Source of the DNA: Polytrichum commune
Lineage: Eukaryota > Streptophyta > Polytrichopsida > Polytrichales > Polytrichaceae
Direction of reading: 5' to 3'
Assembly (NCBI GenBank): GCA_950295325.1
Contig: OX485809.1
Coordinates: forward strand, 10,786,001-10,850,000
DNA length: 64,000 nt
Under the pieces are notes generated by a model. That model did not search any database. It had not been told where the DNA came from and worked only from the letters and a program-made list of their open reading frames with translations. This document shows positions 3,160 through 38,939 of the stretch, one piece after another (within the stretch, counting starts at the first letter, position 1; the number at the start of each line of letters is the position of its first letter). A program made the position numbers and the translations under genes.

Positions 3160-4156
3160 TCAAATGAGCCCATGTAGATTTCTATTATTCCTCCAATCAC
3201 TGTTTATAGTAGTAAAAGACATGTAGTGAAGTAGGTGTTGGAATAAAAGACGTGTTTTGTAGTAGTGTCCACCTTTAAGGAATTGGAAGTATGCAACAAC
3301 TTGTAAGAAGGCGCGAATGTAGTCGTCCACGGTAGCAACGTATAGGTCTCCACCCTTGTTGCCGGAGGCTTGAAGCCACTTGTTGTGGACGGACTCCGCA
3401 AGATTGCACGACGGCATCTCGGCCAACTGGTCTGGGGTCAATACCTTTTCCTGATTGAAAAAATGGAGTATTAGAGCAAGCACAGAAACATGAAAATAAT
3501 GAAAGGAAAAAACAAGAAAGAAAGAGAAGGGAGATGTACCAGTTCCATGAAACCACCCCATTGAAGGTAGCGGAAGTGCCAAAAAGCAAGCCATAGCTGG
3601 AGGTGCTTGAGACCGTCTTCACTTGTACAATTCGACGAAGACCACCAAGCCTTGATAGCTAGGTACCTAGTCTCGGCCTCTTCCATAGACGACGCATTCC
3701 GATATTGAAGGCAAAGGTGTCTATGTTGGTCTTGTAACTCATGTTTAATATACGATTTTGTATGTTTCTCGAGCGATTGTTTCCAATGAAAATAACAGGT
3801 GCGCTCACGGCCCTCCAGTGGAACTTTAGGATCTCCTGAACCATACACAATTCGCACAGCGTTCCAATTGGCTTGGGCACTGTCTGCCATGAAGCCAATG
3901 AAGTTTGGATGTGGGACACCGTGCCGGGCCATGACTTGGTTGAGGTTCTGCCAGAAAAGAACTTGAGCATCCTTGTCCTCGGATTGGAAGTCGCAGCAAG
4001 CGATGGTCATGATGCGCTGGTAGGTACCGTCGTATACGTGGCAGGCCATGGTGGTCCACTTGGCGACGCGTTTGACATGGTCAGACATCATCCAAGCATG
4101 CTCGATATCCCCACCAGGTTGCATACGCTTAACCAAGTCGACCCCACTACCAAGGC
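3160..4156 (-). pseudogene. MULE-like transposase, C-terminal part (after the retrotransposon insertion)
   Basis: This is the 3' part of a gene whose 5' part lies at 11205-12740. With the element removed and one AAGGC duplication counted, the frame continues without a break across the junction. The first exon runs on to 3540. A canonical intron follows at 3539-3451 (GT donor, T-rich tract, AATCAG acceptor, 89 nt, phase 0). A second exon spans 3450-3160. The exon 1 part holds MULE-type features: VYDGTYQ, the acidic motif FMADSAQANWNAV and CYFHW (C-x2-H). In this superfamily these belong to the DDE catalytic domain. Exon 2 continues with LTPDQLAEMPSCNLAES. The SWIM zinc finger usual near the C terminus of MULE transposases is not seen, and the last ~35 residues look degenerate, so the 3' end is probably truncated. 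Whole gene: 812 codons including the stop, with two in-frame TAGs, both in the 5' part. Confidence 0.75.
3451..3539 (-). other. Intron of the transposase gene
   Basis: 89-nt phase-0 intron with GT donor at 3539-3538 and AG acceptor at 3452-3451. Joining the exons gives ...GGFMEL|EKVLTPDQ..., which removes a hydrophobic, low-complexity read-through. Confidence 0.8.
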
Positions 4157-5130
4157 TGTCGCAACCCTTGCTAGGTCCCTTAATAATCTTGCCAATTTTC
4201 AATTCTAGCAAAGGTTACGAGTTGCTAACCCTTCGCATTCCGCCATGCTAATGGATAGCTCCTCTTACCCCGGACCAATAGTTCATAGGAGGGAACCAAC
4301 CCTCCTACTTTGCTTTCGGGACTCACCCCTTAATCGGTAACCCATTTCCCCAATGTGGACTTCCATCCATGGAAGTCCAATCCCATGTTGATCATCGCGT
4401 TGCCGGAGCAACACTACAACAACCCGAACCATACTAGGCAACTATGTCCTCACAATGGGCCAATGCCCATGGAGGCCGTGCCGTTCGGCCTCGGGTGGGT
4501 GAGGCCACACCACCTCACCCATATAAGCCTCTAGGACTCTACACGGAGCCCCTACCCCACCGCCAACCAACCTCTTGTCTCTCTACCAAGAGTTGGGGCC
4601 AAGTGGACATTTTCCCTTAGCTGCTGGGCCTAGAACCCCCCCAGCAGCTTCAGACCATCATAACTTCCTTGTATGATGTCTGATCATAACAACCAACCAC
4701 TCCATCCTCATCTACGCTTCACGTAGATGCCGATGGACTCCTTGCTTGCCCCATTCGGGCAAGGCTTGAGGAAGTTATGCCTGTTTGAACCTTGGCAGTC
4801 CCGGGAATCACTCCCAGGCACTGCTGTACCAGGGCGCTGTCCCGGGACAGCACCCCACTCAAATGGCCATAACTCCTAGCTCACACCTCCGATTGAGGTG
4901 ATCTTGAGCATTCTAGAATCACCACGCCATGAGCTACGCATAGCTCATGGCCTCACCCTCATGCCTCCTAGTCTTTGTGGGTGGGAGGCGTTCCCAACGC
5001 CCGGGGCCCTCACCCACACTAGGATCACTTGGGCCCTCTCACCAACGGCGCCACAAGTCCCGGGTGTCACTCCGGGGTCCCCCTTGTGCCCATGGTGTTT
5101 CGGGCACTCCTCATGGAGAGGTGCGCGACA
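4157..5130 (-). repeat. 3' LTR of copy 1
   Basis: 974 bp, TG...CA termini on the minus strand. It abuts the TSD on its left and the polypurine tract on its right. Confidence 0.93.
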
Positions 5131-5146
5131 CTCACCCCCACCAAAC
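5131..5146 (-). other. Polypurine tract of copy 1
   Basis: Read on the minus strand, the sequence just before the 3' LTR is TTTGGTGGGGGTGAG, a purine-rich plus-strand primer site. The same tract precedes the right LTR of copy 2 (24262-24276). Confidence 0.8.
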
Positions 5147-5940
5147 GGAGTCGATGCCCTCATCGACTATACTCGTAGTCGGCACACCAATTCTCAAGTT
5201 GCCATCCTCTATGGTGCGGCATTGTGTTTACCTTAGGGCGCGACCCCCACAATGCATCTTCAAATTTGGCATGGTCCCAAAGGTGTCGTTCCTAGGTGGT
5301 CCGTTAGCGACCTTGGATCTCTCATCCAAGGACCTAACCTATACTAGACCCACCTACTTTGGGACTCACTTGGGTTGCCCCTCCTTTGGGGCCTCCCCCG
5401 TTAGGCTCCACTAGCCTAACATGACACATCTAGGCGAGACCTCAACGCTTCCACTAAGTTGTCTCGGTTGCAACTCCGAGATGGCTTTCCATTGTTAAGC
5501 CACGCCTCGATCGCACGGGGGTGATGCCAAGTCCCGCCCGACTCGGTTCCCACTTTGCTCTTTCGAGACATGGGTTCATGACTCCCATGCGCCAACTCTC
5601 GTTAGCTCGCGGGTAGCACTTTTATGAGCACGCGCCATCACCTTGTCCCCGCCCGGACAAGCCCACAACTAAGAAGTTTCTTGGTTTTATCCAAGGCCCC
5701 TCCAAGCCATGGCCCCCAATTACTCGGCTTACCCAACCTAGTTTGGCATGTCTATTCCCCCTCTTCCATTAACCAAACACAAGTACAAGACTAGGACCTC
5801 ATCTCATACTTTTCTCTTTGCACCACTAAAGTTTGGACTTTATTCCCTCAAGCCAAAGAACAAGTTCATGTTGTGGAGCAATTAACCTCGAAGCTAAGTG
5901 TGCTAGTAGCGTCTCTCCCCCACTAAAGGAGATTGATGTC

Positions 5941-6110
5941 CTCATCAATGCCTACGCTTCATTTTATTGGAATGTCTAGCCTTAGTTTCTTCAAAGTGCT
6001 TCACCAATTCATTGGTGTTGACCATGTCTCTTGCCGCCACCCAAGCGGTTTCTTTCTCATGGTATCCTCACCATTTCACCAAGTATTCCTTTGTACTTTT
6101 TCTTTCCTTT
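5941..6110 (-). pseudogene. Chromodomain remnant of copy 1
   Basis: The minus-strand frame reads EYLVKW, then a stop (TGA at 6070-6068), then GYHEKETAWVAARDMV and an acidic-to-basic tail. This is the chromodomain pattern of plant chromoviruses, which directs integration to marked chromatin. Copy 2 has the same TGA at the same codon, so the defect predates both insertions. Confidence 0.7.
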
Positions 6111-6406
6111 TCACTTGGGCTTCCTACACTTGAGGATGCCCTCTTACCTCATGTTCCAAATGATGTCCACAAGGTCGGGAGGTGGCCTAATCACTTGCTT
6201 GTGATCGGGCCACAAGGTGTCGTCCTAAAATGACTTTCGTAATGAGACATGAAATGTCGGATGCACTTTGATCTCCGGCGGTAATTCCAACTTATACATG
6301 TCCTTGAACACTTGTTCCACAATGGAAAACGAAGCTCCAATTTTGGACATGAACTTTTGAAGTAAGGCCTTTGGGCAAGGTGAAGTTGTCCACATTCAAC
6401 AACACC

Positions 6407-7363
6407 TTATTGGCCCACCTCATACTCCACTTCGCGTCTTCCGGCATTGATTTGCACTCCGTAGCACCTTCGGGCTTTCTCCACCAACAACTTGGTCATC
6501 TCCAAGACTTGTTTACCATCCTTGGCCAAGTCCTCACCATCTTGGTTGAACTCTAGTGTTGAATGTGCCCCCTCGAGAGCTAGGTTAATAGGTTGGAGCG
6601 CATCCACTCCATAAGCCACCACCAAAGACCACCCCTTGGTAGCCAAGTGCGTGGCTACATTGCAATTACACTCCGCTCGACCCACATAGTCCGCCCAATC
6701 TCCTTGGTCCGCCCCCACCCAGTTCCTCAAGTATTGCTTCAAGATTCCATTCACACGCTCCGATTTCCCATTCATTTGGGAATGCAAGGTCGTGCTAAAC
6801 CTTAGTTTCATTCCGACCTCCTTAGAGAAATGCATTGAAAATGCACTTGTGAACTTTGGATCTTGATCCCACACAATCACTTTTGGCAACCCGTGGTGCC
6901 TCAACCATCCTTTGAGAAAAGGCTATGCGGTCTCCAACGCGGTGGCGGTTCCCACAATCGGCACCATGTGTGCCCACTTGGCAAACCGCTCTACCATCAA
7001 CAAGATGGCATCATACCCATGTGACTCCGGCAAACTTGTGATCAAGTCCATGCACATACCATGCCATGGCGCCAACGGGATAGGCAACGGTTGCAAGAAA
7101 CCGCCTTGCTTTTGGTAAGAGGCTCGGTTCACTTGGCACTTTATTCACGCCTTCACAAAGTGGGTTATATCCTCCTTTATGCACCGCCAATGGTACCTCC
7201 ATGACACCATTCTATGGCGGTTTTTTCTTTCTCCTCTATGGCTGGCAATAGGACTATCACATTTTTCCTTCAAAACCGATAGCCTCAACTTGCCTTGAGG
7301 CACATACACCCGACTTTGCTTACACTTGAACAATCCGTCCACCAACTTAACCTCTTTGAGCAC
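6407..7363 (-). pseudogene. Integrase remnant of copy 1
   Basis: Three collinear minus-strand segments in one frame encode a Ty3/gypsy integrase: an HHCC-like zinc region (7363-7145), the start of the catalytic core with CMDLITSLPESHGYDAILLM (7132-6923), and the rest of the core with the second Asp in DQDPKFTSAF and the Glu in MNGKSERVN (6904-6407). They are separated by a TGA (7147-7145, at the expected second Cys pair) and a TAG (6925-6923). Copy 2 carries both stops at matching codons. The enzyme would insert cDNA into the genome if intact. Confidence 0.78.
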
Positions 7364-7825
7364 CTTGCTCTTGCGAAGCTCACCTAAAAGCTTTTGTGCC
7401 TCGGGGTAGTTAATTTACCCCTCCCGTATCTTGCATCACAAGTTTCCTTTGCCGGCACACATTAGCCACAAGGTTTGGATGGTTCTCATTACTTGGAACT
7501 CATCCGGTCTACTTAGCGCATCCGGCACCACATTTCCATGGTCCGGTTTGTGGACCAAATCCACCTTCATAAGCGCCAAACTATCATGCCACCGCAATGA
7601 CTTGGCGCTCACTTGTGCTTGTATACGTTAAAATACTTTTAGGACACATTGTCCATGTAGACCTTTGCTTTGTGCGACCCCAAATAATGTCGCCACATCT
7701 TCAAGCAATGCACTACGGCAAAGAAGTTCTTTGTCATGAGTTGGTTGTCTTCTTTGACAACCATCGAGCCTCAAGCCCCCATATGCAAAGGCCATCCATC
7801 TTACATTAACAATCCATCATTGGCA

Positions 7826-8584
7826 AAGTTACTCGCCCCCGTATGCACCTCAAAAGGTTTGTCAAACTCCATGAACTTGAGCACGGGCGGTGAAGAAAAC
7901 TTGCTCTTAAGCTCCCCAAAGACTTGGTGACAAGGCTAGTCCCACTCTTGGGATAGCCATTTCTTTCACAAGTCGGACAAGGTCTTACAACTATCGAGCT
8001 TCATGCTCCCATGTGCAATGGCCATATTTTTTTTTTTTACATCCACATCCGCCAAATAAAGTCTTTCGCCCCCATATGCACCTCAAAAGGTATGTCAAAC
8101 TCCGTGAACTTGAGCACGGGCGGCGAAGAGAACTTCGTCTTAAGCTCCTCAATGGCTTGGTGGCACGGCTCATCCCACTCTTGGGATAGCCATTTCTTGC
8201 ACAAGCCGGACAAGGTTCGACAACCATGGAGCTTAATGCTCTCATAAGCAATGGTCATCCATCTTGGATCAACATCCGCCAATGATAAAGTCCTTCGTCT
8301 CCATGTGCACCTCAAAATGCTTATGAAAACCCGGAAACTTAACCACATCTTGTGAAGAGAACTTGCTCTTGAGCTTTCCAAGGGCTTGGTGACAAGGCTC
8401 ATCCCACTCTTGGGATAGCCATTTTCCTCAATAAGTTGAATAAGGTCCTAGCAACCTTAGAAACACCTCGAATGAAGTGGTGGTAGTAGTTGGCTAGGCC
8501 AACAAATGACCTTAGCCCTTCTCTTGAGTCAAGGGCCAATTCTCCTCTTGGATTGCCTTGACATTTGTCATGTTCATCCACCAA
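7826..8584 (-). pseudogene. RT connection and tandemly repeated RNase H start, copy 1
   Basis: On the minus strand GLRSFVGLANYYHHFIRG (within 8584-8399) is the connection region that normally follows the RT palm. It is followed by about three diverged copies of a ~230-bp unit starting at EWDEPCHQA and containing the PPVLKF...PFEVH stretch, the beginning of the RNase H domain. Copy 2 has two units. The duplicated units cannot be a working RNase H. Confidence 0.7.
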
Positions 8585-8648
8585 CTTCCTTTGTCATCAC
8601 ATACCTCAAGAACTCAACCTCTCGTTGAGCAAGTTTTTTTTTTTTTTT

Positions 8649-9163
8649 TTAAAAAAAATTTATTTTTCCACTCGTTGGCGGTAACATTTTGGACAACACA
8701 TTGGTGAATACATCCTTGTACCTCACCAACATCCCACCAATATGGTTTTGGGGAGGCCTATCTTTCCTAGCCTCCCCATGAGTTCCTTGGAGTTGCTCCA
8801 ATTGAACCACGACCATTATTATTATGTTCTTCCGTTTATTCATTTGGTCCATTAAGACCAAATTCGAGTTGGTTCCTCCTACCATAGGAGTCCTTGTCAA
8901 TTTGTAGTGCAATTCTTTGCCATCAAGACATCACAAATGCACCGCAAGCTCACCGGCTTGCACCTCACATCTATCATGTGAGTTCCAAAGAAGGTAGCCT
9001 TCACAATGACATGCATTTCATCTATTTCACATGGTGTGAAATTTTGACAAAAATCCAATGTCCCACATTGAAAAGTTACATGCATCGCGGCCTCCTTTGT
9101 TTCATGCGGTTCGCCCTTTCCAAACCGCACCTTGGTGGGCTTGCCCGCTCTATCAATCGGCAA
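8649..9163 (-). pseudogene. Protease-to-RT linker remnant of copy 1
   Basis: Two minus-strand frames (9163-8897 and 8912-8649) match the copy 2 frame at 20517-21008. They end with KYKDVFTNVL, the motif just before RT in gypsy elements. Directly after it, where RT should start, there is a long T/A homopolymer (about 8634-8667) and then the post-RT sequence LNEREIEFLRY in another frame. Confidence 0.6.
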
Positions 9164-9169
9164 GCCCCA

Positions 9170-10216
9170 ACTCCCTTGTGAGCTTTGGGGTCATGAAAGA
9201 GTCCATTGCCTCTTTGTCAACTCATGAGACATATCTCCGATTACTTGAGCCTCAAGGTATAAAAGACTTGGCCTTGGCTTAAGGCTATTAGCCTTGGCCA
9301 CAATGCCATAGTCTAACATTCGGTCCACGGCAACAATATGTTTTGGCTTGGTCCGCAAAGCCAACTTTTAACATCCCGTCCGCGGCACAAATATGTTCTA
9401 GCTTGGTACCACCAATTCACATTGTAACATTCCGTCCGCGGCCCAAACATTATATGGATTAGTAGCATAAAACCAACTTCTAACATTCCGCATACGGCAC
9501 AAATATGATTTGGCTTGGTACCACAAAGCCACCTTCCACATTGTGTCCGCGAAACGAGCATGATTTGCCTTGGTATAACGGCCACACTACTTATGCCCAT
9601 TTCCTTGAGACCTCTTTCGGGTAAACCCACTTCATGGTGGTACGCCGTCGAATTTCTTTTTAGGACCATCGACTTCAATGTTCTTCAAATCTTAAAGATT
9701 CCCGATACGTCCTCAAGAAGCTTTGGGGACTCGGACATGGAATTCACCACCCGCTTTTGAATTCCCACCTAAAACGATGCATGTCTCACAAGGTCGTCCA
9801 TTTTAGGTGTATCCTTCACTTGTGCGTTTGAATAGCGCACATAGGCCTTAAGAGGCCCCGGGTGCCTCATTTGCACCAATTCCAACATCACCACCTTTTA
9901 AGCATTTCAAATTGGAATTTCAATCCAAAATTAATACCCTCCAAGGTTTAAGGTGCATTCGGTATTCTAGGCCCCAAATACTTTTGGAGGTTTGTGGGAG
10001 CCCTTTTCAAAGCACTCCTTCATTTTCCTTACCGAATCCACCTTAGTGCCCACCATTGTCATTAGAACCAATGGTATGGTCAAACTCCACTTGCACATGA
10101 TCCTTGTTCCAATTTAAGCCTCACAACCTTTTGGAAACCACGGGCTCACCATCACAACCCGCATTTTTTTGATAGTCATGTTTCCCTCAAAGTGCGAGCT
10201 CAAAATTTGGAACCCT
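9170..10216 (-). other. Gag-position leader of copy 1, no intact frame
   Basis: This is where gag should lie, between the PBS and the protease/RT linker. I find no zinc knuckle and no long frame. Several imperfect short repeats with 'ttccgtccgcggc' words occur at 9315-9560. The matching part of copy 2 (19717-20516) is shorter and also lacks gag. Confidence 0.5.
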
Positions 10217-10228
10217 GCTCTGATACCA
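10217..10228 (-). other. Primer-binding site of copy 1 (initiator Met-tRNA)
   Basis: The minus strand reads TGGTATCAGAGC two bases inside the 5' LTR. This is the classic plant Ty3/gypsy and Ty1/copia primer site complementary to the 3' end of initiator Met-tRNA. Confidence 0.93.
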
Positions 10229-10230
10229 AG

Positions 10231-11204
10231 TGTCGCAACCCTTGCTAGGTCCCTTAATAATCTTGCCAATTTTCAATTCTAGCAAAGGTTACGAGTTGCT
10301 AACCCTTCGCATTCCGCCATGCTAATGGATAGCTCCTCTTACCCCGGACCAATAGTTCATAGGAGGGAACCAACCCTCCTACTTTGCTTTCGGGACTCAC
10401 CCCTTAATCGGTAACCCATTTCCCCAATGTGGACTTCCATCCATGGAAGTCCAATCCTATGTTGATCATCGCGTTGCCGGAGCAACACTACAACAACCCG
10501 AACCATACTAGGCAACTATGTCCTCACAATGGGCCAATGCCCATGGAGGCCGTGCCGTTCGGCCTCGGGTGGGTGAGGCCACACCACCTCACCCATATAA
10601 GCCTCTAGGACTCTACACGGAGCCCCTACCCCACCGCCAACCAACCTCTTGTCTCTCTACCAAGAGTTGGGGCCAAGTGGACATTTTCCCTTAGCTGCTG
10701 GGCCTAGAACCCCCCCAGCAGCTTCAGACCATCATAACTTCCTTGTATGATGTCTGATCATAACAACCAACCACTCCATCCTCATCTACGCTTCACGTAG
10801 ATGCCGATGGACTCCTTGCTTGCCCCATTCGGGCAAGGCTTGAGGAAGTTATGCCTGTTTGAACCTTGGCAGTCCCGGGAATCACTCCCAGGCACTGCTG
10901 TACCAGGGCGCTGTCCCGGGACAGCACCCCACTCAAATGGCCATAACTCCTAGCTCACACCTCCGATTGAGGTGATCTTGAGCATTCTAGAATCACCACG
11001 CCATGAGCTACGCATAGCTCATGGCCTCACCCTCATGCCTCCTAGTCTTTGTGGGTGGGAGGCGTTCCCAACGCCCGGGGCCCTCACCCACACTAGGATC
11101 ACTTGGGCCCTCTCACCAACGGCGCCACAAGTCCCGGGTGTCACTCCGGGGTCCCCCTTGTGCCCATGGTGTTTCGGGCACTCCTCATGGAGAGGTGCGC
11201 GACA
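10231..11204 (-). repeat. 5' LTR of copy 1
   Basis: 974 bp with the same termini as the left LTR. It abuts the PBS on its left and the AAGGC target duplication on its right. Confidence 0.93.
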
Positions 11205-12740
11205 AAGGCCAACCTCGGACATCTTGAAAACGAAAACTTTGTCCTTTTCGTTACCCTGGTCTGGAAATTGATTACGCTGGACATAGGCCTAGTTGCTGAT
11301 ACCTCGAAGTTTGGCGATTCCATCCATAACCCCTAACCTACGCAAGTATTTGAAACTGGTAACCTTGTTACGGAGGTGGGGGGAATTCAACTCTTTGCAA
11401 CGATCAAAAACTGGTTCAAGTTCTTCCAACGAGAGAAGGTGATGAGGATCAGTATCATTGCGGAGGAGGAACTCACCCACAAGGTCCTTGCTAGCTTCAA
11501 GGACGATTTTGCTATGAGTGGCTTGGGGCGTTCGCTCGACGTGCTCCTCGATGAGGGAGTTGATGCGCTGTTGGCTATCTCTACAATTGCCAACCTTGAC
11601 GGGATGATGATGGTTGCCAAGATGAATACAGGCACGCTGAGTGGTGCCTTTGCCGTGGACGTAGAAGATTCTGGCATGACATGGAGCAATGCATTTGGGA
11701 GGCTCCTTACATATCCGGCACATTAGAGTGGATCCCAGAGGCAAGGGTCCACCAACGGGGAAGGGCTCCTTGGTGAAACCGTCGAAATCAATATCATTGA
11801 CCGGGGAAGTCCGATGAGCACGTTGTAGGTAATCGCACAGAGGATTTTGGCATTCGAGGTGGCCAACACAACAGGAGGAGCGAAAAGCAAGGCCCATGTC
11901 ATTGGTGATATTGGTGGTCTGGGTTTTAGTCCAAACATGGCCGTCATAGCGTTTGTCCATGCCGTCCATGGATTGGGCCTTCTTATGAGAGGAAGAGACA
12001 CCGAGTGGGGGTAGGACAAACATGAGATCACCATCAAAGCGAGGCGGCAGGTAATTAACCTCTTGAATTTGCAAGGTGTCATAATCCAGCTTCTTGAGGA
12101 TGTTCTTCCTACCGGGCATGGAGGCAAGAGAACGCAGACATTGAAGAATGGAAATCGGGGGTTTGCCTGGAAAGGGAGGCAGAGGAGACGGAGGAAGGGG
12201 GGTAACAAAGGTGGAACGGACGGAGGATGGGGATGGCTTGTGAATGGGAGTGGAAAGGGGGGGATCATCACCATCGAAGGAATCGGAAAGATGTATGACA
12301 GTCTACGTACCGGGCTCAGTCTTAACTTTGACCAAGGGAGGAGTATTGAAAGTGGACACATAGGAATGGGGAGGGGTACGGATATCCGTGGATACATTCG
12401 TGCAAGGACATGGGAGTCCGTACACCCTGTATTTACCAGCGCAGAGTTCCCACGTTGATGAGCCACTGTCGGCAACCCTAGGATTCTCACGAATGGACAA
12501 TGACAAAAGAGAAGTAACAGTATCATAAATCTCGCGTTCGACCCATATTGTACTGTTTTGCAAAGAAAACCTAATACTAAGGTCTAGAGAAGAGACAGAT
12601 GCAAAACCGTGCGCATCTATGGGGAAAAGAAGGGGGATGCCCATGCCAGTGGCACGGAGCTCAACCATTTCCGTTAAAGAAGACATTGTGGACGAGGAAG
12701 CCATGGATAAAGAGATGGACGAATAAGAAAAAGACCCCAA
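11205..12740 (-). pseudogene. MULE-like transposase, N-terminal part with Cys/His-rich GCM/WRKY-like domain
   Basis: This is the 5' part of the gene broken by the element at 4157-11204. The frame begins at ATG 12740 (MGSFSYSSISL; a second in-frame ATG at 12704 gives MASSST). It runs as one frame to the insertion point, interrupted only by TAG at 12305-12303 and TAG at 11291-11289. Residues ~290-380 hold ordered Cys and His residues (CCVGHLECQNPLC, LMCRICKEPPKC, RACIHLGNHHHP). The spacing resembles the WRKY-GCM1/FLYWCH zinc fingers that MULE transposases use to bind DNA. Then come FKYLRRLGVMDGIAKLRG and DKVFVFKMSEVGL, which join exactly to the C-terminal part. Residues ~140-205 are Pro/Ser-rich. 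The function would be DNA binding and cut-and-paste transposition in the nucleus. The assignment to MULE is by motif, not by search. Confidence 0.72.
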
Positions 12741-12910
12741 AAAAGGAAAAAGAGGGAAGGCTACCGAACGATTGGAAACCCTAAAGATTCAACAGTGGTA
12801 ATATATAGGTCTGAGAGGTAGGAGAGGGGTCATTTTGTGAGCGAAGGAGAAGGCTGCCCAGAGAGTAGGGAGAACAGAAGAGAGCAATAGAGGGGAAGTT
12901 GGACGCACAC
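12741..12910. promoter_or_regulatory. Putative bidirectional promoter between transposase and methyltransferase-like gene
   Basis: This 170-bp interval separates two divergent start codons (minus ATG 12740, plus ATG 12911). It contains a TATATA core around 12800-12806, which reads as a TATA motif on both strands. It also has AAACCCTAA (12776-12784), a telo-box-like element known from plant promoters. The core lies ~60 bp from the minus start and ~105 bp from the plus start, reasonable for plant 5' leaders. Promoter activity is inferred. Confidence 0.45.
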
Positions 12911-13240
12911 ATGAAGGAACCAGAGCACATTACAGATTCCACAATAGATCCAGGAAAGAAGCGGAAGAAGAGAAAGGGAGGGACTAGTTTCAGCAATTCG
13001 AAACAGAGGAGACGGAGAGAACTAAAGAAGAAGGAGGAAACGTGCATAGAAGGAAGAGGGACCCCTACAGACTCACATAACACGTGTGCAGTGGACAAGG
13101 GAGGCTTGAATCTGATATCGATAGACGAAGAAGCGGAGGACAGTGGTTCACAGGCAATATCTATGGAAGAGAGCGAGCATCCGAACAGTTCAAATCAGAG
13201 CGGGTCTCGCGAGGAGAGAAGGGAGAATTCGATGATTACT
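12911..13240 (+). CDS. Candidate first exon of the ParB/methyltransferase-like gene
   Basis: The frame starts at ATG 12911 (MKEPEHITDSTIDPGKKRKK) and encodes 110 residues. They comprise a strongly basic N terminus (KKRKKRK, KQRRRRELKKK), which could be a nuclear localisation signal, then an acidic Ser/Glu-rich stretch (IDEEAEDSGSQ, SMEESEHPNSS). At 13241 there is a perfect plant donor, GTAAGT, in phase 0. The acceptor before the next exon at 32876 is also phase 0, so the join is possible. The intron would be 19.6 kb, or about 6.3 kb without the retrotransposon in it. Alternatively it is a stand-alone frame ending at 13327, or the downstream gene starts at 32888. The exon linkage is inference. 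Confidence 0.4.
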
Positions 13241-13843
13241 GTAAGTTTGTCGTGGAGGATATATGCACAAGGGGCACTTAAAGATATAGGTTTATGGGAA
13301 CAAGACAAAGGAAATTCAAAACTCTAAATAAAGAAGAAGACTTGCAGACAATAGGGCAATTCAGATATGGGTCTGCATTTTGAAAACAAGAAACTTGCGC
13401 GTACGTGGGGTTTTCACTTGAATAGGTTGTAATATGTGTTACCTAGGTAGTGCGATAACTTGGAAATCTTTGGGAATGCACAAAGGGACGACACACTAGG
13501 AACCGAGAGGGTTGGGTTGGTTGGTATGCACTAGGGACAGACCGAGAGGGTATTGGGTGAAACACATGTTGACGAGGAAGAGGTGCGGTGTGTGTCTATA
13601 GGTATGTGGAAAAGACAGGATAATATGTTCATATTATTTGTGTATGAACGAGAGCCAGACCATCTCGGGTTTTGGGTTGAGGTCGTAGGTTATGACTAAA
13701 AAACGGCGACTTCTGAACTAGTTGGAGCTCTTTGAGAAGGAACTAGGTTTCCGATAGTGTGGTGGGTGCGGTGCCGAGTGTGTAGTGGGCGCGGTTCCGA
13801 GAGTGGACTTGGGGCGGTTGGGTATACATCAATTCTCACTTTA
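13241..13843. other. Proposed intron sequence leading into the satellite
   Basis: No gene recognised beyond the end of the preceding frame. From ~13490 there are isolated copies of the CCGAGAGGG half of the satellite palindrome, suggesting decayed satellite units. Confidence 0.45.
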
Positions 13844-16848: not shown

Positions 16849-16850
16849 TG

Positions 16851-19702: not shown

Positions 19703-19704
19703 CT

Positions 19705-21008: not shown

Positions 21009-21019
21009 AAAATAACTTT

Positions 21020-28540: not shown

Positions 28541-29194
28541 TATGTTGGCGAGGTCGCCAACGCCTCTAAGTGGGGGAGGGCATGTACCCCAAATCGAGCA
28601 AAAGTTGAGTAGAAAGGAAGTGCAACCCAAAGCACAAGCTAAGGAAAGCTAAGATTGTGAAAGAAAAACGGTGAGAGCACAAGTACACGTAGAACGAACC
28701 TAAGTCGAAGTCGGAAGATGGGCGCCGCCAAGGGGACTATCGAAGCAAAGTAAGATGGCTTGGTTGTGGCGATACCAAGGTGCGGGTGCCGAGCGTGAGG
28801 AGGATCTCCCACATGGCACACCCCGGAGCGAAAGCGCATGAATGGCCAATCATGTCCTAATGGGTAAACGGGGGAAGGTCTAGCTAACTCGAACGCATTC
28901 TATTACCAGCCGGCAACAAATACCCGATACTCGCTGCGGCCAGGCGAGGTCTAAAGACCGAGGGACTTGAGGATTGTTCTAGAGGTGGCAATTCCCGATT
29001 CATCACGAACGGGAGCCGCAATGGATTGGCGCAAGTATGAGGGAAGGCACACGCGTTTAAAGCCTTCGCCTTGGAAGCTAACACGAGCCGGTGAAGGATC
29101 CACACCGAGGGCGTTTAGACTTCGCCCCGTCCGGGACGGGAAGAGCCGTACTAAAGACTTGATGCGGACATCAAGTGTTCTAAGTGGGGGAGGA
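28541..29194 (+). other. 3' untranslated region and polypurine tract of the chromovirus
   Basis: No gene. It ends in TAAGTGGGGGAGGA just before the right LTR. Confidence 0.7.
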
Positions 29195-29707
29195 TGTAAG
29201 GCCCCGTTAGAACGGACTAAACACTTAAGAGGTTTTGGGTGCGGCCTTGAGCCGCACCTCTTGAGTTAGGGTTGAACCCGGTTGGGTTTCCGGACTAAGG
29301 CGGGAGGACTTAGTCGCGAAGGTGGGGTGACCCGTGGCGCGAGGCACAAAGGTCTTGGCCGCGAGGCTAAGGGGTGAGTCTTTGAAGAGACTCGGAGCAC
29401 ATGCGGGGCATGTGGGAAATGCCCAACTCCCGGGCCGTGGCAAGGGTCCGGGGTGCCGAGGGATGACTATTAATAGCCCCAAAGGAGTGTTAGGAAACTA
29501 GCACGTAAGTACTTAGGATCGGGACTCGTTGGGACTAGTCGGGACTAGTCACAACGAGCCGGGACGCGTCGGGACATGTCGGGACAAGTCGGGGCTAGTC
29601 CGGGACTAGTCATGGCGAGTCGGGACTCACGGTGCAAAGTGGTTTGCAGGTTGTGAGTTAGAAGCTTTGCGCGGGGCGCAAGGGACGTGACGTTGAGCGA
29701 CGTTACA
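29195..29707 (+). repeat. 3' LTR of the chromovirus
   Basis: 513 bp, matching 16337-16848 with a few substitutions and one extra G. Confidence 0.93.
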
Positions 29708-32700
29708 GTGGGGATAGTGTGGACCTGATTTTGACAACTATGATGTGGCTTGTGTATATGAATGTTTGTGGACCAATTAGTAATTCATGTTGAGAAGTTT
29801 TGTGTGTGCACTAGGATGACACCCTCTCGGAACCGAGAGGGTCTAGGATGGGTTTAGTATCGACCAGATTTTGAAAACTATGATATGGCTTTTGTATTTG
29901 AATGTATGTGGACCAAGTAGTAATTCATGTTGAAATTGTTTGCGGGTGCATGAGAGGGAGACCCTCTCGGAACCGAGAGGGTCAAGTTGGGGATAGTATG
30001 TACCAAATTTCGAAAACTGTGATTTGGCTCGTGTATGTGAATGTGTGTGGACAAGGTAGAAACTTAGGCTCAAAAGTTTTGTGGGTGCATGAGAGGGAGA
30101 CCCTCTCGGAACCGAGAGGGTCAAGGTGGGGATATTAAGGACCAGATTTTCACAACTATGATGTGGCTTGAGTATGTGACTGTATGTGGACAAGCTAGTT
30201 ATTCATGTTGAGAAGTTTTGTGTTTGCACTAGGATGAGACCCTCTCGGAACCGAGAGGGTCAAGGTGGGGAACCGAGAGGGTCAAGGTATGTGAAAGTGT
30301 GTGGACAAGGTAGAAACTTTGGTTCAAAATTCTTGTGGGTGCATAAGAGCTAGACCCTCTCGGAACCGAGAGGGTTTAGGTTGTGACAATTTGGACCAGA
30401 TTTTGACAAGTATGATGTGCATTGTGTATGTGATAGTATGTGGTCTAGGTAGGTGCATAGGTTGAAATTTTTAGTATGTTCACTAGAATGATACCCTCTC
30501 GGAACCGAGAGGGTATACCTTGAGATGTTTTGTACCAGATTTTGACAATAATGGGGTATGTATATGTAAAAGGCAGGTTTTTATGGTGAAATTTATTGTG
30601 TATGCACAATATTGAGACCATCTCGGAACCGAGAGGGTCTACGTGCTGGATTTCTGTACCATATGGTGGGAATTATGTATGTGGACTAGGTAGGACTTTG
30701 GGTGAACAGTTTTGTGAATGCACTGAGGTGAGACCCTGTCGGTTCCGAGAGGGTCAAGGATGGGGATTTTGGAAACTATGATGTGGCTTGTGTATGTGAA
30801 TGTATGTGGACTATGTAGGTACTTAGGTTGAAACTAATTTGTGGGTGCACGAGAGTGATACCCTCTCGGAACCAAGAGGGTCAAGGTTGGGATAGTGTGG
30901 ACTAGATTTTGACAACTCTCATGTGGCTTGTGTATATGAATGTTTGTCGACCATCTAGGTAATCATCATGATATTGAGTGTGTGTGCATGACAGTGGGAC
31001 CGTCTCGGAACCGAGAGGGTCTAGGATGGGTTTAGTATCAACCAAATTTTGAAAAATATGATGTGGCTTTTGTATGTGAATGTATATGGACCAACTAGTA
31101 ATTCATGTTGAAATTGTTTTCGTGTGCATGAGAGGGAGACCCTCTCGGAACCGAGAGGGTCAAGGTGGGGATTGTGTGGACCAGATTTTGACAACTCTGA
31201 TGTGGCTTGTGTATATGAATGTATATGGACAAGGTAGCAACTTAGTTTCAAACTTCTTGTGTGTGCATGAGAGTGGGACCGTCTCGGAACCGAGAGGATC
31301 TAGGATGGGTTTAGTATGAACCAGATTTTGAAAACTATGATGTGGCTTTTGTATGTGAATGTATGTGGACCAACTAGTAATTCATGTTGAAATTGTTTTC
31401 GTGTTCATGAGAGGGAGACCCTCTCGAAACCGAGAGGGTCAAGGTGGGGATTGTGTGGACCAGATTTTGACAACTCTGATGTGGCTTGTGTATATGAATG
31501 TATATGGACAAGGTAGCAACTTAGTTTCAAGCTTCTTGTGTGTGCATGAGAGTGAGACCCTCTCGGAACCGAGAGGGTCTAGGATGGGTTTAGTATGAAC
31601 CAGATTTTGAAAACTATGATGTGGCTTTTGTATGTGAATGTATGTGGACCAACTAGTAATTCATGTTGAAATTGTTTTCGTGGGCATGAGAGGGAGACCC
31701 TCTCGGAACCGAGAGGGTCAAGGTGGGGATAGTGTGGACCAGATTTTGACAACTCTGATGTGGCTTGTGTATATGAATGTATATGGACAAGGTAGCAACT
31801 TAGGTTCAAACTTCTTGTGTGTGCATGAGAGTGAGACCCTCTCGGAACCGAGAGGGTCAAGGTGGGGATAGTATAGACCAGATTTTGACAACTCTGATTT
31901 GGCTTGTGTATATGAATGTATGTGGACAAGGTAGCAACTTAGGTTCAAGCTTTTTGTGTGTGCATGAGAGAGAGACCCTCTCGGAACCGAGAGGGTCAAG
32001 GTGGGGATTGTGTGGACCAGATTTTGACAACTCTGATGTGGCTTGTGTATATGAATGTATATGGACAAGGTAGCAACTTAGTTTCAAACTTCTTGTGTGT
32101 GCATGAGAGTGAGACCCTCTCGGAACCGAGAGGGTCTAGGATGGGTTTAGTATGAACCAGATTTTGAAAACTATGATGTGGCTTTTGTATGTGAATGTAT
32201 GTGGACCAACTAGTAATTCATGTTCAAATTGTTTTCGTGTGCATGAGAGGGAGACCCTCTCGGAACCGAGAGGGTCAAGGTGGGGATAGTGTGGACCAAA
32301 TTTTGACAACTCTGATGTGGCTTGTGTATATGAATGTATATGGACAAGGTAGCAACTTAGGTTCAAACTTCTTGTGTGTGCATGAGAGTGAGACCCTCTC
32401 GGAACCGAGAGGGTCAAGGTGGGGATAGTATAGACCAGATTTTGACAACTCTGATTTGGCTTGTGTAAATGAATGTATGTGGACAACGTAGCAACTTAGG
32501 TTCAAGCTTTTTGTGTGTGCATGAGAGAGAGACCCTCTCGGAACCGAGAGGGTCAAGGTGGGGATAGTGTGGACCAAATTTTGACAACTCTGATTTGGCT
32601 TGTGTATATGAATGTATATGGACAAGGTAGCAACTTAGGTTCAAACTTCTTGTGTGTGCATGAGAGTGAGACCCTCTCGGAACCGAGAGGGTCAAGGTGG

Positions 32701-32836
32701 GGATAGTATAGACCAGATTTTGACAACTCTGATTTGGCTTGTATATATGAATGTATGTGGACAACGTAGCAACTTAGGTTCAAGCTTTTTGTGTGTGCAT
32801 GAGAGAGAGACCCTCTCGGAACCGAGAGGGTCAAGG
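29708..32836. repeat. 139-bp palindromic satellite, right part of the split array
   Basis: Continuation of the array at 13844-16336. Regular 139-bp units are clearest at 31020-32830, where frames repeat every 139 bp. Each has the GACCCTCTCGG-AA-CCGAGAGGGTC inverted repeat. Units at 30250-30800 are more diverged, and one has the centre inverted (GGTTCC, ~30730). It ends 39 bp before the splice acceptor of the next coding exon. Confidence 0.95.
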
Positions 32837-32875
32837 TGTCGGTTGTTCTAAAGATTGTATGCCTCATTTTTCCAG

Positions 32876-35800
32876 GAATCACAATCGATGGACCTTATTA
32901 TCATGGAGGAGCCCTCTATGGATGACTATAATGTTCCATTGGAGGGTCCTGTGTTACCTGTTGATCCACCTGTTGCAACAGATTCTTTGCGTCCGCTTGA
33001 TGAGTCCAACCCAGAGGAGACTGAGCTATTGATTCGGAGATCACAGAAAGAGGACTCTAATTCTGTTATACACCGGGTTCAAATCAAACCCCTTCTTAAG
33101 TCGCGTTTCTCTATTCCACTATGCCGCTTGCGTTGTCTTCCACTTGTTCGTCCCCTCAACGAGGTTCAGGTCGCTCGGTTGGAAAATGAGTTCGTCATGG
33201 GTTACCGCGAAGGTGACCGGGCCTTGTATGTCTCTCCCTACAACAACCTCAATGAGGTACTCAATGTCTCCGATGACATCCAAAATTCTTGGAGTTCATT
33301 GTGGAAAGAGGCCAATGAGGAATTCGACGCCATGCTCCAAAATGACCCTGACCTTGCCCACCTTTCTGGCAAGATGTTCTACGTGTGGGAGGGTAACCAC
33401 CGTTTGTCGGCATGGTGGAGGCACATCAATAAGCATCACTCGCTGGAGAAAGATTGGCACATCTCTGTTGACTGTATTGTCGTGGATCCAAGAAATTCCA
33501 CCGCGGTTTTCTTGAATGCCATGAATGACATCAATTGGTGAGTTCACTTTTCATTTTGTTTTTTTCCTCGATTTTGGTGTGGTGCATTGTTTCTTTGATT
33601 CTCATTACTTTGCCTTTTAGGTCCACGGAGCACGATCATGTTAAAGACAACCTCCCTGCCAAATTGCTTCGCATTCGTACATTTGGAAAAATGAAGCTTG
33701 AGGATTTCTCCGACCTCATTTCGGTTGACGACTACAAGATGTGCGAGTCTAAGATGGACAAGAATCCTACTTGGTATCCTCTCACATTGGATGTCTTCGT
33801 CAAGTTCTTGTACAAGGTAATTTTACTCCTGTCTATTGTTTTTCCTTTCCTCATGTTCTATGCATTTGTCTTTACTCACTTCTCTGTTTGTTATAGAGGG
33901 AGATATCCAATGCGGCGGATACTGCTGCACGGTTGTACCGCGAGGCCACTCCCGAGGCTCTTAGATCTGCTCCTGGGATTTGGGACGCTATGACAAAAGC
34001 CCAAGACAGATTGATCAAAAGTATTCGATCTAGAAGCTTTGAAAAGTTCATCTCCGTCGCCCACAAGGACAACGGCGATGACTTCTTCCAAGAGGTACAA
34101 CCTTCACCTCTTCACTTTTAGTTTGTTTCGTCGTTCGTATTTTTCCACTTAAACTTCAAGTACATTTTCTTACTTTGCATTATTCAATGTTGCAGATTGA
34201 CCGTCATTTTTCGTCCTTCCTTGTCCCTAATATGACTATTGAGAAACTACAAAAAGTTGCCACTACACATGTGGATGCTTCCTTTAAGGCTAGGTGGCTT
34301 CGATGGTGGAATTCCCCCGCCGATGTCAAAAACAAAAACAAGTTCCCCTCTTCTCTTCCTCTTCGCGAGAAAGTCCTCGACGATTGGCTTCACAAAGCTT
34401 CCTTTTGGGCACAGGTACTTCAATACCTTCATGTGGATAATGGGCTACTATGCATTTGTATGTATGTGGACCACCAAGTGTCACATATTGAAATTCTTGG
34501 AATTGCAATAGAGGCCGACCCTCACCAGATTTTCACAACTGTGATGTGGCTTGTGTATGTGTTTGTATGTGGTCCAATTAGTTATTCAGGTTGAGAAGTT
34601 TTGTGTGTGCACTAGGATGAGACCCTCTCGGAACCGAGAGGGTCTAGGATGGTTTTGTTATGGACCAGATTTTGACAACCTTTATGTGGCTTTCGTATGT
34701 GAATGTATGTGGACCAACTAGTAATTCATGTTGAAATTGCTTGTGGGTGCATTAGAGTGAAACCCTCTCGGAACCGAGAGGGTCAAGTTGGGGATAGTAT
34801 GGACCAGATTTTAAAAACTAGGATGTGGCTTGTATATGTGAATGTATGTGGACAAGCCAGTTATTCATTTTGTAATTTCTTGTTTGTGCATTAGCAGCGA
34901 ACCCTCTCGGAACCGAGAGGGTCTAGGATTGTTTCAGTATGGACCTGATTTTGAAACAGCTAGTTATTCATGTTGAGAAGTTTTGTGTGTGCACTAGGTT
35001 GAGACCCTCTCGGAACCGAGAGGGTCTAGTATGGTTTTAGTATGGACCAGATTTTGACAACATCTGATGTGGCTTGTGTATATGAATGTTTGTGGTCCAA
35101 TTAGTAATTCATGTTGAGAAGTTTTGTGCGTGCACTAGGATGAGACCCTCTCGGAACCGAGAGGGTCTAGGATGGCTTTTGTATTTGAATGTATGTGGAC
35201 CAAGTAGTAATTCATGTTGAAATTGTTTGCGGGTGCATGAGAGGGAGACCCTCTCGGAACCGAGAGTGTCAACTTGGGGATATTAAAGACCAGATTTTGA
35301 CAACTATGATGTGGCTTCAGTATGTGAGTGTTTGTGTACCAGCTAGTTATTCATGTTGAAATTGTTTGTGTGTGCATGAGAGTGAGACCCTCTCGGAGCC
35401 GAGAGGGCCAAGGTGGGGATAGTAAGGACCAGATTTTGACAACTATGAGGTGGCTTGTGTATATGAATGTTTGTGGACCAATTAGTAATTCATGTTTAGA
35501 AGTTTTGTGTGTTCACTAGGATGAGACCCTCTCGGAACCGAGAGGGTCTACTATGGTTTTAGTATGGACCAGATTTTGACAACTATGATGTGGATTGAGT
35601 ATGTGACTGTATGTGGACCGGCTAGTTATTCATTTTGAAATTTCTTGGTTGTGCACTAGGATGAGACCCTCTCGGAACCCAGAGGGTCTATGATGGTTTT
35701 GTTATGGACCAGATTTTGACAGCCTTGATGTGGCTTTTGTATGTGAATGTATGTGGACAAACTAGTAATTCATGTTTAAATGGATTGTGATTGCATTAGA

Positions 35801-38800
35801 ATGAGACCCTCTCGGAACCGAGAGGATCAAGTTGGGAATAGTATGGACCAGATTTTAATAACTATGATGTGGCTTGTATATGTGAATGTATGTGGACAAG
35901 CCAGTTATTCATTTTGAAATTTCTTGTTTCTGCACTTGCAACGAACCCTCTCGGAACCGAGAGGGTCTAGGATGGTTTTAGTATGGACCAGATTTTGACA
36001 ACCTTGATGTGGCTTTCACGGGTAGATCACTCCATTGTCAAGTTGAACACCACGTGCGACCAAAAAAAATCTTCTTTTGGTAAGTTGCACCACCAAAATG
36101 GGTCAAACTTTTATCAAATTTTTTTCATAAGTAGATATACACAGTACCTATGACATAGTCAAAAGTGGTAACTAAATTTGATGATTTGTTTTTTTCATAA
36201 AACATACCATTTCTAACTAGAATGACACAAAATTGAACTAAAAAATTTACTAAAAAAAATAAAGATGACTAAAAATTTCAAAAAAGTATACAAAAGATAC
36301 TATCAATGGTTATGTATATGTAGAAAAAATATCATAAATTTTAAAATTATATATGACATGTAATATAGGGGTAGCAAACTTTGTCCGCACGTGGTGTCAA
36401 CTTGGCAATGAAGTGACCTCCCCGTGGTGGCTTTTGTATGTCATTGTATGTGGACTAGGATGGTACTTAAGTTGAAATTTTTAGTGTCGGCTTTCCATCT
36501 TGGACTTACTTTGTTTTTCTGTTATCTTAGTTGGAGAAAGGTGTTGAGGGTGAGATTGCCTCATTTGAAAATGAATGCTCCATCGACATTAACTGGGTTT
36601 CTATGGAGGACCTTTTCCCACCTGCTCATTTTGTCGAGCATTGGAGGCTCATTTTGTGGGACAAGGCATTTCGAGTATATTTTGATGACAAAGGTGACTT
36701 CAAGTTCACCAAAGGGCTCAATCTCATGGAGTTCGAGGAAGGACCAATTGCTATCAAGCGCGTTGCTTACCGGTAATCATTTTTTCTTTTTCTTTCGTGC
36801 TTCATATCTTCGTTTCTTTTCACTACATTCTTTTGTTCTAATTTTCTTCACTTCATAGGTACATTCACCGTGAGCTTGTCGTTAAGAATGCTCTTCCAGC
36901 TTCGTCATTGCCGTCTTTCCTTCACGAGTGGGTCGATGACAACTCCAACCTTTTTGTGTACACGCCCATGCAACTTGCAAAATTTCCACACGTCCATTTG
37001 GTCACTGGTGGTTGGTACCTGGATTGTTCTCGTGGATTTGTTCCAGAAGTTGAAGAACCCCTCTACAGGAGCCTTGTTTCCGCTGCCCCTGAGGTCATTG
37101 AATTGGAGGAAGAGCCAGATGAAGATGAGAATCTTACTCCTACCGCCATTGACAAAGAGGTAGCACCGGTGAAGGCCAAAGGCAAGGGTAAGAGGGTAGC
37201 TTCTAGTCAAGTGTCCACCCGTTCTTTCACCAAGGCCTCTGTTCAGCGCACTCCCGCTACCACAGTTGTCGGAAGTCCAACGGCCACTCCTTCTGTCCCT
37301 TCTCGAGACCATGTTCCTGCTCCTTCCCATAGCGGTGTCACCATTCCCTCCGTGCCACGCAAGAGGAAGGCCGTCACTCCGGATACCTCCGGAACTTCTT
37401 CGGAGAAGTCGTCTTCTCTCTCTTTGCTTGAGAATATCGATATGGGGGAGCTCATAGAGGAACTCATGCGGTCCAAGGTTGCCCCCCCGGCTTACCGTCG
37501 CATCCAGGAATTTCTTACTAAGGTTTGTGCGACATTCTGTTGTTTTCTCGTTCATTCATTCTATTTCACCAATTGGTTTCTTATATTTTTCTTTGGCTTT
37601 TTGATTTCTAGGTGGGAGCGGGTCGTATTCGTCCTAATACCAAACCTAAGGTGCACACAGGGTTTGATCTTCTCTTCGCAGATGTGCCGGAGAACCTATG
37701 TGTTCTTGGCATCTCGTCATCTTCGTCCGATGTTCCTCAATGGAACAAGCGTTCTTCCTCTTACTTTGAGGTTCTATTTGCCTTTGCTAACGCAAACCTC
37801 CATGATGACGGCGTCCTTGTCTTTGCACACGCCGCCGATCCTGACGTCTCTAGATCCATACATAACTAGGCACACACAGAGGATTTCTACGTTGCCGAAG
37901 ACTGGTTTGGGATGAATGACCTCGACCTCCAATCGCCTACTAATCCAGCTGATTTGGTATGTCTTTCTTGCCTCATCTATTTCTAGTTTTCTCTTTTTTT
38001 CTCTTCCATTTTGTTTTCCTAATACTACCATTTTCATTTCTAACAGACTCGCAAGTTCTTCATCAAGGTTCTCGTGCGCAATAATTCGGTTTTGAATGTC
38101 CGGACTTCGGACTTCGAAGACATGGGTTACAATCTGAAGAGAGATGGTTGGCTCAACAGTTTTGCGGATGCCAAGAACCAGTCGATGAGGGAAGACGGTA
38201 TTCCTTGGAGAGGTGCTCGTGAGAAGCGCCCGGAGTTCTTCTCCATCATTTTCTCCGCCCTCACGGATAAGGATGACATTATTATGAATTGGCAATGTGG
38301 CCTTGGTCGGTTTTTCTTTTCCTTGTTTCATTTCCTTGTTTTTTTTCCTTGCTTCATTTCCCATTCATTCCCTTATGCTCATCTTATGGCATTTTGTTTT
38401 TATAGGAGGTTCCGTGATTGCATGTCGTTCCATTCAACGCCATATTGTGGCGCTTGAGTCCGATCTCGACATCTTTAAGTCCATCCTCCTTCCTATGCGT
38501 GAAACTGAGCAAGAACACACTTCTCAGCATGCTGCCCCACAACGAGGATCCGTTTTTGCTCCTCCTCCCCGGAAGATGGCCAAGCGCAATTTTGATTTGC
38601 TGTGTGCGTAAGTTCGTTCTTGTTTTCTTACTTGCTTGTATTTGTATCTTCTTCTATCGGATTTTTTGGCTTGTACTAATTTGTTTTGTTTTTCCGTTTT
38701 GACTGTGCAGAGTTCAAAATGAGAGTCCCATTCGTGTCCTTAATGCAGACATGTTTGCAACCCCTTCGACAACCTTCCAGCTCCCTTCGTATGCCGCTGA

Positions 38801-38939
38801 CATTGCCAATCTTTTGGCAAAAGCACCTTCCCCACCTCCTCGTCGCATTCGCCCTCTCAACAAAGTAGTATTTGATTTCCTAGACATAGAGGCCGACCAG
38901 GGCGAGGTTAGTGATAGACATGATAGTCCTAGTTGTTAA
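32876..38939 (+). CDS. ParB-like / DNA methyltransferase-like fusion gene (exons 2-11)
   Basis: Ten exons with canonical GT-AG borders: 32876-33537, 33621-33816, 33897-34094, 34196-34414, 36531-36772, 36859-37522, 37612-37956, 38047-38305, 38406-38607, 38711-38939. All joins keep one frame, ending at TAA 38937-38939. If exon 1 is separate, translation could start at ATG 32888 (1067 residues); with 12911-13240 it is 1181. The first large exon contains KMFYVWEGNHRLSAWW, like the G-x-HR-x-x-A signature of ParB/sulfiredoxin-fold domains. A Pro/Ser/Lys-rich linker follows (exon 6). Later exons resemble a permuted amino-methyltransferase: FDLLFADVPEN (DPPY-like position), GVLVFAHA, then DDIIMNWQCGLGGSVIACR and IVALESD (the FxGxG SAM-binding position). 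ParB-methylase fusions are known in phages and plasmids. The DPPY site is altered to DVPE, and a TAG lies at 37867-37869, so activity is doubtful. The family assignment is by motif. Confidence 0.6.
34455..36016. repeat. Palindromic satellite inside intron (exon 5 to exon 6)
   Basis: About eleven satellite units in the 2116-nt intron 34415-36530. Each has the same inverted repeat, with spacing near 139 bp but several truncated units (for example around 34930 and 35170). It continues for ~55 bp after the MITE (36427-36480). Confidence 0.9.
36017..36426. mobile_element. MITE with ~44-bp inverted termini
   Basis: A 410-bp AT-rich insertion in a satellite unit. The left end starts CACGGGTAGATCACTCC and the right end, read on the other strand, starts CACGGGGAGGTCACTTC. 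The similarity extends ~44 bp, including ACACCACGTGCG. It is flanked by the 8-bp direct repeat GTGGCTTT (36009-36016 and 36427-36434). An 8-bp duplication suggests a hAT-type transposase as the mobiliser. No coding capacity. Confidence 0.85.

What the first reader, a model, noticed from the sequence alone, without database searches (positions are those of the whole stretch)
3160..38939. A divergent transposase / ParB-methyltransferase gene pair that may be one mobile system
Seen: a minus-strand MULE-like transposase starts at 12740 and a plus-strand frame starts at 12911, 170 bp apart around a palindromic TATATA. The plus frame has a perfect phase-0 donor (GTAAGT, 13241) that fits the phase-0 acceptor before 32876, the first main exon of a ParB-like/DNA-methyltransferase-like gene. 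Known: MULEs can carry accessory genes beside the transposase, for example VANDAL elements with anti-silencing factors. Inferred: here the accessory gene is a DNA-modifying enzyme, which could mark or protect element ends, or counter silencing. A two-gene transposon pairing a DDE transposase with a ParB-methylase would be new to me.
Basis: partly seen in the sequence, partly recalled or inferred. Interest (0 to 1): 0.9.

Follow-up and report, generated by a model that had tools for sequence, protein, structure and literature searches.

The report
Two-gene jumping element with ParB-like protein
A plant-type genome carries a repeated jumping gene that pairs its cutting enzyme with a bacterial-looking, ParB-fold and methylase-like protein and an array of mirror-image DNA sites, which suggests, but does not show, that the element marks or shields its own DNA.

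Summary
The window carries most of an old, broken copy of a two-gene DNA transposon: 56.9 kb with its nested insertions, from 8.4 kb left of the window to 48444, with short inverted ends and a 10-bp duplication (GAGAGACATG). Two copies elsewhere are 16.2 kb, 99% identical outside the repeat array, with the same ends. Of the 80 scored ParB exons that have a scored transposase core within 20 kb, 78 are head-to-head with it (about 1 expected). Both genes show purifying selection. Exon 12911-13240 has a counterpart with a donor in the same phase in a distant copy. The second protein has a predicted ParB/sulfiredoxin fold and a methylase-like C-terminus; its SAM motif match is weak and catalytic DPPY reads D(V/I)PE. 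Intron 1 holds tandem repeats with a palindrome (core CTCGGNNCCGAG); three arm types are symmetric, two loci are not. ParB-methylase genes in transposons are already reported in brown, green and red algae, so the kind is known; this Mutator-like, plant-type version with a palindrome array appears to be a new variant. The mechanism (VANC-like or parS-like self-recognition) is inferred.

The parts
1..48444 (.). Transposon copy (part inside the window; it begins in the left flank at G000:C7:10777562 = L004 1562 and is 56,883 bp in all)
   Evidence: End sequences and 10-bp duplication GAGAGACATG on both sides
48445..48454 (.). Right target-site duplication GAGAGACATG; left copy at L004 1552-1561
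48388..48444 (-). Right terminal inverted repeat
   Evidence: blastn with copy A's ends
11210..12704 (-). Transposase, N-terminal part; in-frame TAG at 12303-12305 and 11289-11291
   Evidence: tblastn P0005/P0018; scripts
4157..11204 (-). LTR retrotransposon inserted in the transposase gene, duplication GCCTT at 4152-4156 and 11205-11209
3540..4151 (-). Transposase, catalytic core (rest of that exon)
3268..3450 (-). Transposase, next exon; the gene continues in L004, about 4.0-5.2 kb left of the window
1..3267 (.). Right part of a CACTA-like element (24-bp inverted ends, TCC duplication) that splits the transposase gene; left end at L004 6043
12911..13240 (+). Exon 1 of the ParB/methylase-like gene (basic N-terminus), donor GTAAGT
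   Evidence: Homologous exon with a donor in the same phase in copy A 6199-6552 (33% identity, E 1e-4)
13241..32875 (+). Intron 1: palindrome arrays split by an LTR retrotransposon
13862..16336 (+). 137-139 bp tandem repeats with palindrome, left part
16337..29707 (+). LTR retrotransposon inserted in the array, duplication GTGGG (16332-16336 and 29708-29712), LTRs 98.5% identical over 524 columns
29708..32838 (+). 139 bp tandem repeats with palindrome GACCCTCTCGGAACCGAGAGGGTC, right part
32876..33537 (+). Exon 2, ParB/sulfiredoxin-fold domain (GNHR motif)
33621..34414 (+). Exons 3-5 (33621-33816, 33897-34094, 34196-34414)
34524..36016 (+). Palindrome array in intron 5 (10 core sites)
36531..37522 (+). 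Exons 6-7 (36531-36772, 36859-37522)
37612..37956 (+). Exon 8, methylase-like, FADVPENL where DPPY is expected; in-frame TAG 37867-37869
38047..38607 (+). Exons 9-10 (38047-38305, 38406-38607), SAM-binding motif I-like MNWQCGLGGS
38711..38940 (+). Exon 11 with stop
39119..40961 (+). Palindrome array 3' of the gene (the 3' part of the element has 9 core sites)

Best explanation
Shown: this is one broken copy of a repeated, two-gene DNA transposon of Mutator-like type. The transposase and a ParB-fold/methylase-like gene run head-to-head between short inverted ends with 9-10 bp target duplications; both are under purifying selection, and the first intron of the second gene carries tandem repeats of a palindrome. 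Inferred (about 0.5): the second protein recognises the palindrome array of its own element as a dimer, loads or spreads on the element, and changes its chromatin or DNA-methylation state in cis, so that the element escapes silencing or is marked for transposition. This would resemble the VANC proteins of VANDAL elements, but with a ParB/methylase-like protein. Because the catalytic motif is not DPPY, a SAM-binding reader or an altered methylase seems likelier than an ordinary N6/N4 methylase.
Against: No binding, methylation or expression data exist here. Loci L033 and L035 have arms that are not symmetric outside the core. DPPY is absent in the 3 copies read; window, copy A and L077 each carry an in-frame stop in the second gene. 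No Pfam match above cut-off for the transposase, ParB or methylase parts. 51 of 150 scored ParB exons have no scored transposase core within 60 kb. A transposase-bound array, or one that merely expands in introns, is not excluded.
Confidence: 0.72

Rival explanations
1. The second protein is an active DNA methylase with an unusual motif IV that adds a bacterial-type mark (N6A or N4C) to the element, for self-recognition or protection, as proposed for the algal ParB-methylase transposons.
For: SAM motif I-like region matches six phage-type methylases (hhalign probability 63%, E 7e-5 in one comparison); the order motif IV before motif I is that of beta-class enzymes (recalled); a phage-type ParB-methylase fusion is in hand (L001); published proposal for Ectocarpus (PMC12477816, passages).
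Against: DPPY reads D(V/I)PE in 3 of 3 copies read; no PF01555 match; without the fern sequence the profile match falls to 1.3%.
Confidence: 0.2
2. The second protein helps transposition itself: a ParB-type nickase or CTP clamp that pairs element copies or ends through the array.
For: Predicted fold close to CTP-bound ParB; a ParB domain fused to a methylase was reported to nick DNA (PMC5512222, passage); in the sequence in hand the array lies inside the element only.
Against: The array is internal, not at the ends; CTP or catalytic residues were not tested beyond the GNHR motif.
Confidence: 0.2
3. The second gene is a passenger caught by a Pack-MULE-like event and the repeats are neutral satellite.
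For: Mutator elements acquire extra open reading frames (PMC6446971, passages); tandem repeats expand readily; several copies carry stops.
Against: Purifying selection between copies, matching exon structure, the same pairing in 78 copies, fern relatives, three arm types that stay complementary.
Confidence: 0.06

Closest known systems
Sola1-1_Ec32 of Ectocarpus and the algal ParB-methylase transposon genes it cites (PMC12477816; passages read)
   Same: Large DNA transposon; a gene on the strand opposite to the transposase encodes a ParB-like plus N4C/N6A methylase-like protein of 1104 aa (here about 1180 aa).
   Different: Sola1 there, Mutator-like with 9-10 bp duplications here; plant-type host; degenerate motif IV; palindrome array in intron 1 (no such array is mentioned in the passages read). 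Sequence relationship not tested.
VANDAL elements with VANC (PMC5735166; passages read)
   Same: Mutator-type element with accessory gene; target motifs in tandem repeats, also in introns of the accessory gene, that diverge between families.
   Different: VANC is not described as ParB/methylase in the passages read; the repeat motif here is a palindrome.
Fungal transposons with TET/JBP (PMC12730594; passages read)
   Same: DNA transposons that carry a DNA-modification-type enzyme.
   Different: Dioxygenase instead of a ParB/methylase-like protein.
Phage-type ParB-methylase fusions (L001, L070, L071)
   Same: ParB-like domain followed by a methylase domain.
   Different: Uninterrupted bacterial-type genes; L001 has DPPY and FAGSG.
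parS / sopC centromere arrays of plasmids (recalled)
   Same: Palindromes in tandem repeats next to a ParB-type gene.
   Different: No ParA seen, no evidence of partition; binding untested.

Membership tests
Mutator superfamily (MULE) | 8-11 bp target duplication | tested here: met
   Window 10/10 GAGAGACATG, copy B 10/10, copy A 9/9 (9/10 at 10 bp). Range from PMC6446971, passage
Mutator superfamily (MULE) | Terminal inverted repeats (variable, may be short or absent) | tested here: met
   About 42 bp, 93-95% in copies A and B
Mutator superfamily (MULE) | MULE-type DDE transposase profile | tested here: inconclusive
   D..D..CxxH seen by eye in an alignment of 29 of the 120 listed relatives (motif recalled); 0 of 29 match a MULE model in Pfam; the search for canonical MULEs of this genome did not complete
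Mutator superfamily (MULE) | SWIM zinc finger (in many) | tested here: inconclusive
   CxC..CxH by eye in P0018 and in the left flank; no Pfam match
VANDAL | VANB/VANC accessory genes | not tested
   No VANC sequence was at hand
VANDAL | Motif-bearing tandem repeats in non-coding parts | tested here: met
   binding not tested
ParB/sulfiredoxin superfamily | ParB/Srx fold | tested here: met
ParB/sulfiredoxin superfamily | PF02195 sequence profile | tested here: not met
   No match in hmmscan; in the own genome only 3 matches, on small contigs C12 and C23
ParB/sulfiredoxin superfamily | CTP binding and parS-type DNA binding | not testable with these tools
   needs biochemistry
Beta-class N6/N4 DNA methylase | SAM motif I | tested here: inconclusive
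   hhalign probability 63% with the fern sequence, 1.3% without (runs with -glob: 40.5% and 0.2%)
Beta-class N6/N4 DNA methylase | Catalytic motif IV (D/N/S)PP(Y/F/W) | tested here: not met
   D(V/I)PE in window, copy A and L077, 3 of 3 read
Algal ParB-methylase transposons | Opposite-strand gene with ParB-like and methylase-like domains inside one transposon | tested here: met
   the methylase part only at motif level
Algal ParB-methylase transposons | Sequence homology to the algal proteins | not tested
   sequences not held

The most novel reading that the evidence does not exclude
The element carries its own centromere-like module: a ParB-fold protein and a tandem palindrome array that co-evolve as protein and site. 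The protein loads on the array (possibly as a CTP-dependent clamp), spreads over the element and sets a cis-acting, subfamily-specific chromatin or DNA-modification state. A bacterial partition/methylation architecture would thus have been turned into an anti-silencing or self-marking system of a eukaryotic transposon.
Probability: 0.35. Interest if true: 0.9.

Novelty: new variant of a known kind. Interest (0 to 1): 0.7.

Why it matters
If the protein binds the palindrome array of its own subfamily, protein-site co-evolution and spreading in a eukaryotic transposon become directly testable in one genome with at least 150 ParB-exon copies and several palindrome types. It would extend ParB-methylase transposon genes from algae to plants (with fern relatives) and to a Mutator-like transposase, which would suggest that unrelated transposons took up the same bacterial module, and it would give a second, chemically different route to the kind of anti-silencing seen with VANC.

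Tried and rejected
A 498-bp inverted repeat between the left flank and 51248-51739 (88%) was considered as the element's ends and rejected: I saw no duplication beside it, and the true ends were found elsewhere.

A dN/dS run with minus-strand loci not turned was wrong and was replaced. The viral-contig scan with P0005 found no relative. The fern protein model failed (pLDDT 32), so there is no fold evidence for the methylase part. hhalign of the element's methylase part without the fern sequence gave 1.3%. Three of the four loci fetched gave no methylase match (only L077 did). For window against copy A dS was saturated or undefined, so there is no selection test for exon 1. The search with the long ParB/methylase query found only 4 proteins, all Adiantum nelumboides, 21-26% identical; the PDB profile search of the ParB exon gave one meaningless match; PHROGs gave nothing for P0002 and one chance-level match for the window exon.

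Not answered by the machine, so open: genome-wide palindrome searches, PF01555 and PF10551 in the own genome.

Literature statements rest on listings and on the passages named in the report; subscription papers are mostly not held (Petroll 2025 not held).

Full report
What was checked. The window is G000:C7:10786001-10850000 of a 407.8 Mb genome in 64 contigs, seven of them 42-78 Mb.

The transposase gene is real but broken in this copy. It has 155 relatives at E <= 1e-3 in the protein collection, 120 of them listed; the two best are 82-83% identical over 89-90% of the query. In the window it carries in-frame TAG codons at 12303-12305 and 11289-11291, an LTR retrotransposon at 4157-11204 with duplication GCCTT, and a CACTA-like element that ends at 3267 and starts at L004 6043 (24-bp inverted ends, TCC duplication). 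Its last part, with a SWIM-like CxC..CxH, lies 4.0-5.2 kb left of the window. Copies with an open frame exist: the 16-kb copies A and B have 766 codons without a stop.

The element is bounded. Copies A and B (C2, 54.2 and 56.5 Mb) span 16.2 kb each. They are 99% identical in two stretches of 6.8 and 8.0 kb on either side of the repeat array, the arrays differ in make-up, and matching stops at the ends. The ends are about 42-bp inverted repeats with target duplications GTGTAAATC (9/9; 9/10 at 10 bp) and AGAAACTCGG (10/10). With these ends the window copy runs from L004 1562 (C7:10777562) to window 48444 (C7:10834444), 56,883 bp, with GAGAGACATG on both sides. Both genes lie between the ends in all three copies.

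The two genes travel together. The ParB exon gave 150 scored matches out of 1285 first-look candidates, the transposase core 150 out of 1682, so counts are lower bounds. Of the 150 ParB exons, 80 have a scored transposase core within 20 kb; 78 are head-to-head, 1 tail-to-tail, 1 on the same strand. Within 60 kb it is 90 of 99; the other 51 have no scored core that near, which may reflect the caps or solo copies. Random placement gives a mean of 0.7 head-to-head pairs (maximum 5 in 1000), a shift control 1.07 (maximum 6). Related genomes could not be searched. dN/dS was computed for the best 30 of the 150 loci of each gene and is below 1 in every pair with dS 0.2-2: ParB exon median 0.13 in 25 pairs of 9 intact exons (0.18 in all 332 pairs), transposase core 0.045 in 178 pairs of 27 intact cores (229 in all). 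Pairs share history and are not independent; pairs with smaller dS are uninformative, some with ratios above 1.

Copy A has a counterpart of 12911-13240 at 6199-6552 (33% identity, E 1e-4) ending at a donor in the same phase (GTACGT against GTAAGT), and an acceptor in the same phase before the ParB exon. A script that chose splice sites in copy A by alignment to the window protein, with the phases imposed, found GT and AG sites for the other nine introns, and five internal exons have exactly the window's length; for intron 1 its automatic donor lay 15 bases further on, and the conserved GTACGT is my reading. Copy B has the same 11 exons without an in-frame stop; copy A, L077 and the window copy each have a stop in the second gene. 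No RNA data are available.

The palindrome array. Intron 1 of the window copy holds 137-139 bp repeats with GACCCTCTCGGAACCGAGAGGGTC, split by an LTR retrotransposon at 16337-29707 (duplication GTGGG). Copies A and B have GAGGCCTCGGATCCGAGGCCTC; others have CACCC..GGGTG arms or different centres. The core CTCGGNNCCGAG occurs 54 times in the window: 35 in intron 1, 10 in intron 5, 9 in the 3' part of the element, 0 in 48445-64000, and 0 in L004 and L005; single-base shuffles give 0.03. Of 29 other ParB loci, 26 have cores within 1.5 kb upstream of the exon (145 sites, and 48 in the exon or downstream part of the loci); the 30 transposase loci (108 kb) have 2, both in L051. Of 25 sequences with three or more core sites, 23 keep the arms complementary next to the core, with three arm types (GACCCT, CACCCT, GAGGC); L033 and L035 do not. 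Units were collected by the core only, so the arms were not selected for symmetry, but sites within an array and among close copies are not independent. The genome-wide palindrome search did not complete.

How it most likely works. By anatomy it resembles VANDAL elements: an accessory protein whose target motifs sit in tandem repeats, also in introns of its own gene, and diverge between families (PMC5735166, passages). A ParB-fold protein beside a palindrome array adds a parS-like reading (recalled comparison). I think it most likely that the protein binds its own array and changes the element's state in cis. Shown: the pairing, ends, selection and array; predicted: the fold; inferred: binding, spreading, anti-silencing.

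What is known. [quoted passage not shown] its reference 51 was seen only in the reference list, and what I take to be reference 50 only as a link, which I recall as a 2011 review of eukaryotic DNA methylation). So such transposon genes are not new in print. In the listings of searches I saw no report of them in land plants or in Mutator-like elements, nor of the array; the library lacks most subscription journals and I opened only five papers for passages. Mutator features (8-11 bp duplications, SWIM, short or no inverted repeats) are from PMC6446971, passages, whose text does not contain the words methyltransferase or moss. The transposase matches no MULE model in 29 of 29 members scanned, so 'Mutator-like' rests on duplication length and motifs.

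Noticed in passing
G000:C4:41.5-59.1 Mb: 46 of the 150 scored ParB exons and 41 of the 150 scored transposase cores lie in this stretch. It may be a non-recombining or heterochromatic region (guess).
   Followed up: no
G000 contigs C12 and C23 (L001-L003): Small contigs (61 and 20 kb) with phage- or bacteria-like genes: a ParB-methylase, ParB-like genes and a frame that looks like a serine recombinase (by eye); probably contamination of the assembly.
   Followed up: partly
window 41578-47260: Three arrays of a 48-bp repeat near LTR pieces inside the element's 3' part.
   Followed up: no
window 51993-52820: 33-bp tandem repeat, about 25 copies.
   Followed up: no
window 60455-64000: Long open frame that looks like a gypsy-type retrotransposon (by eye) and runs off the window.
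   Followed up: no
P0001-P0004 (Adiantum nelumboides): Four fern proteins with a ParB-like then methylase-like order; the other three are 95-97% identical to P0002, which hints at recent copies there too.
   Followed up: partly
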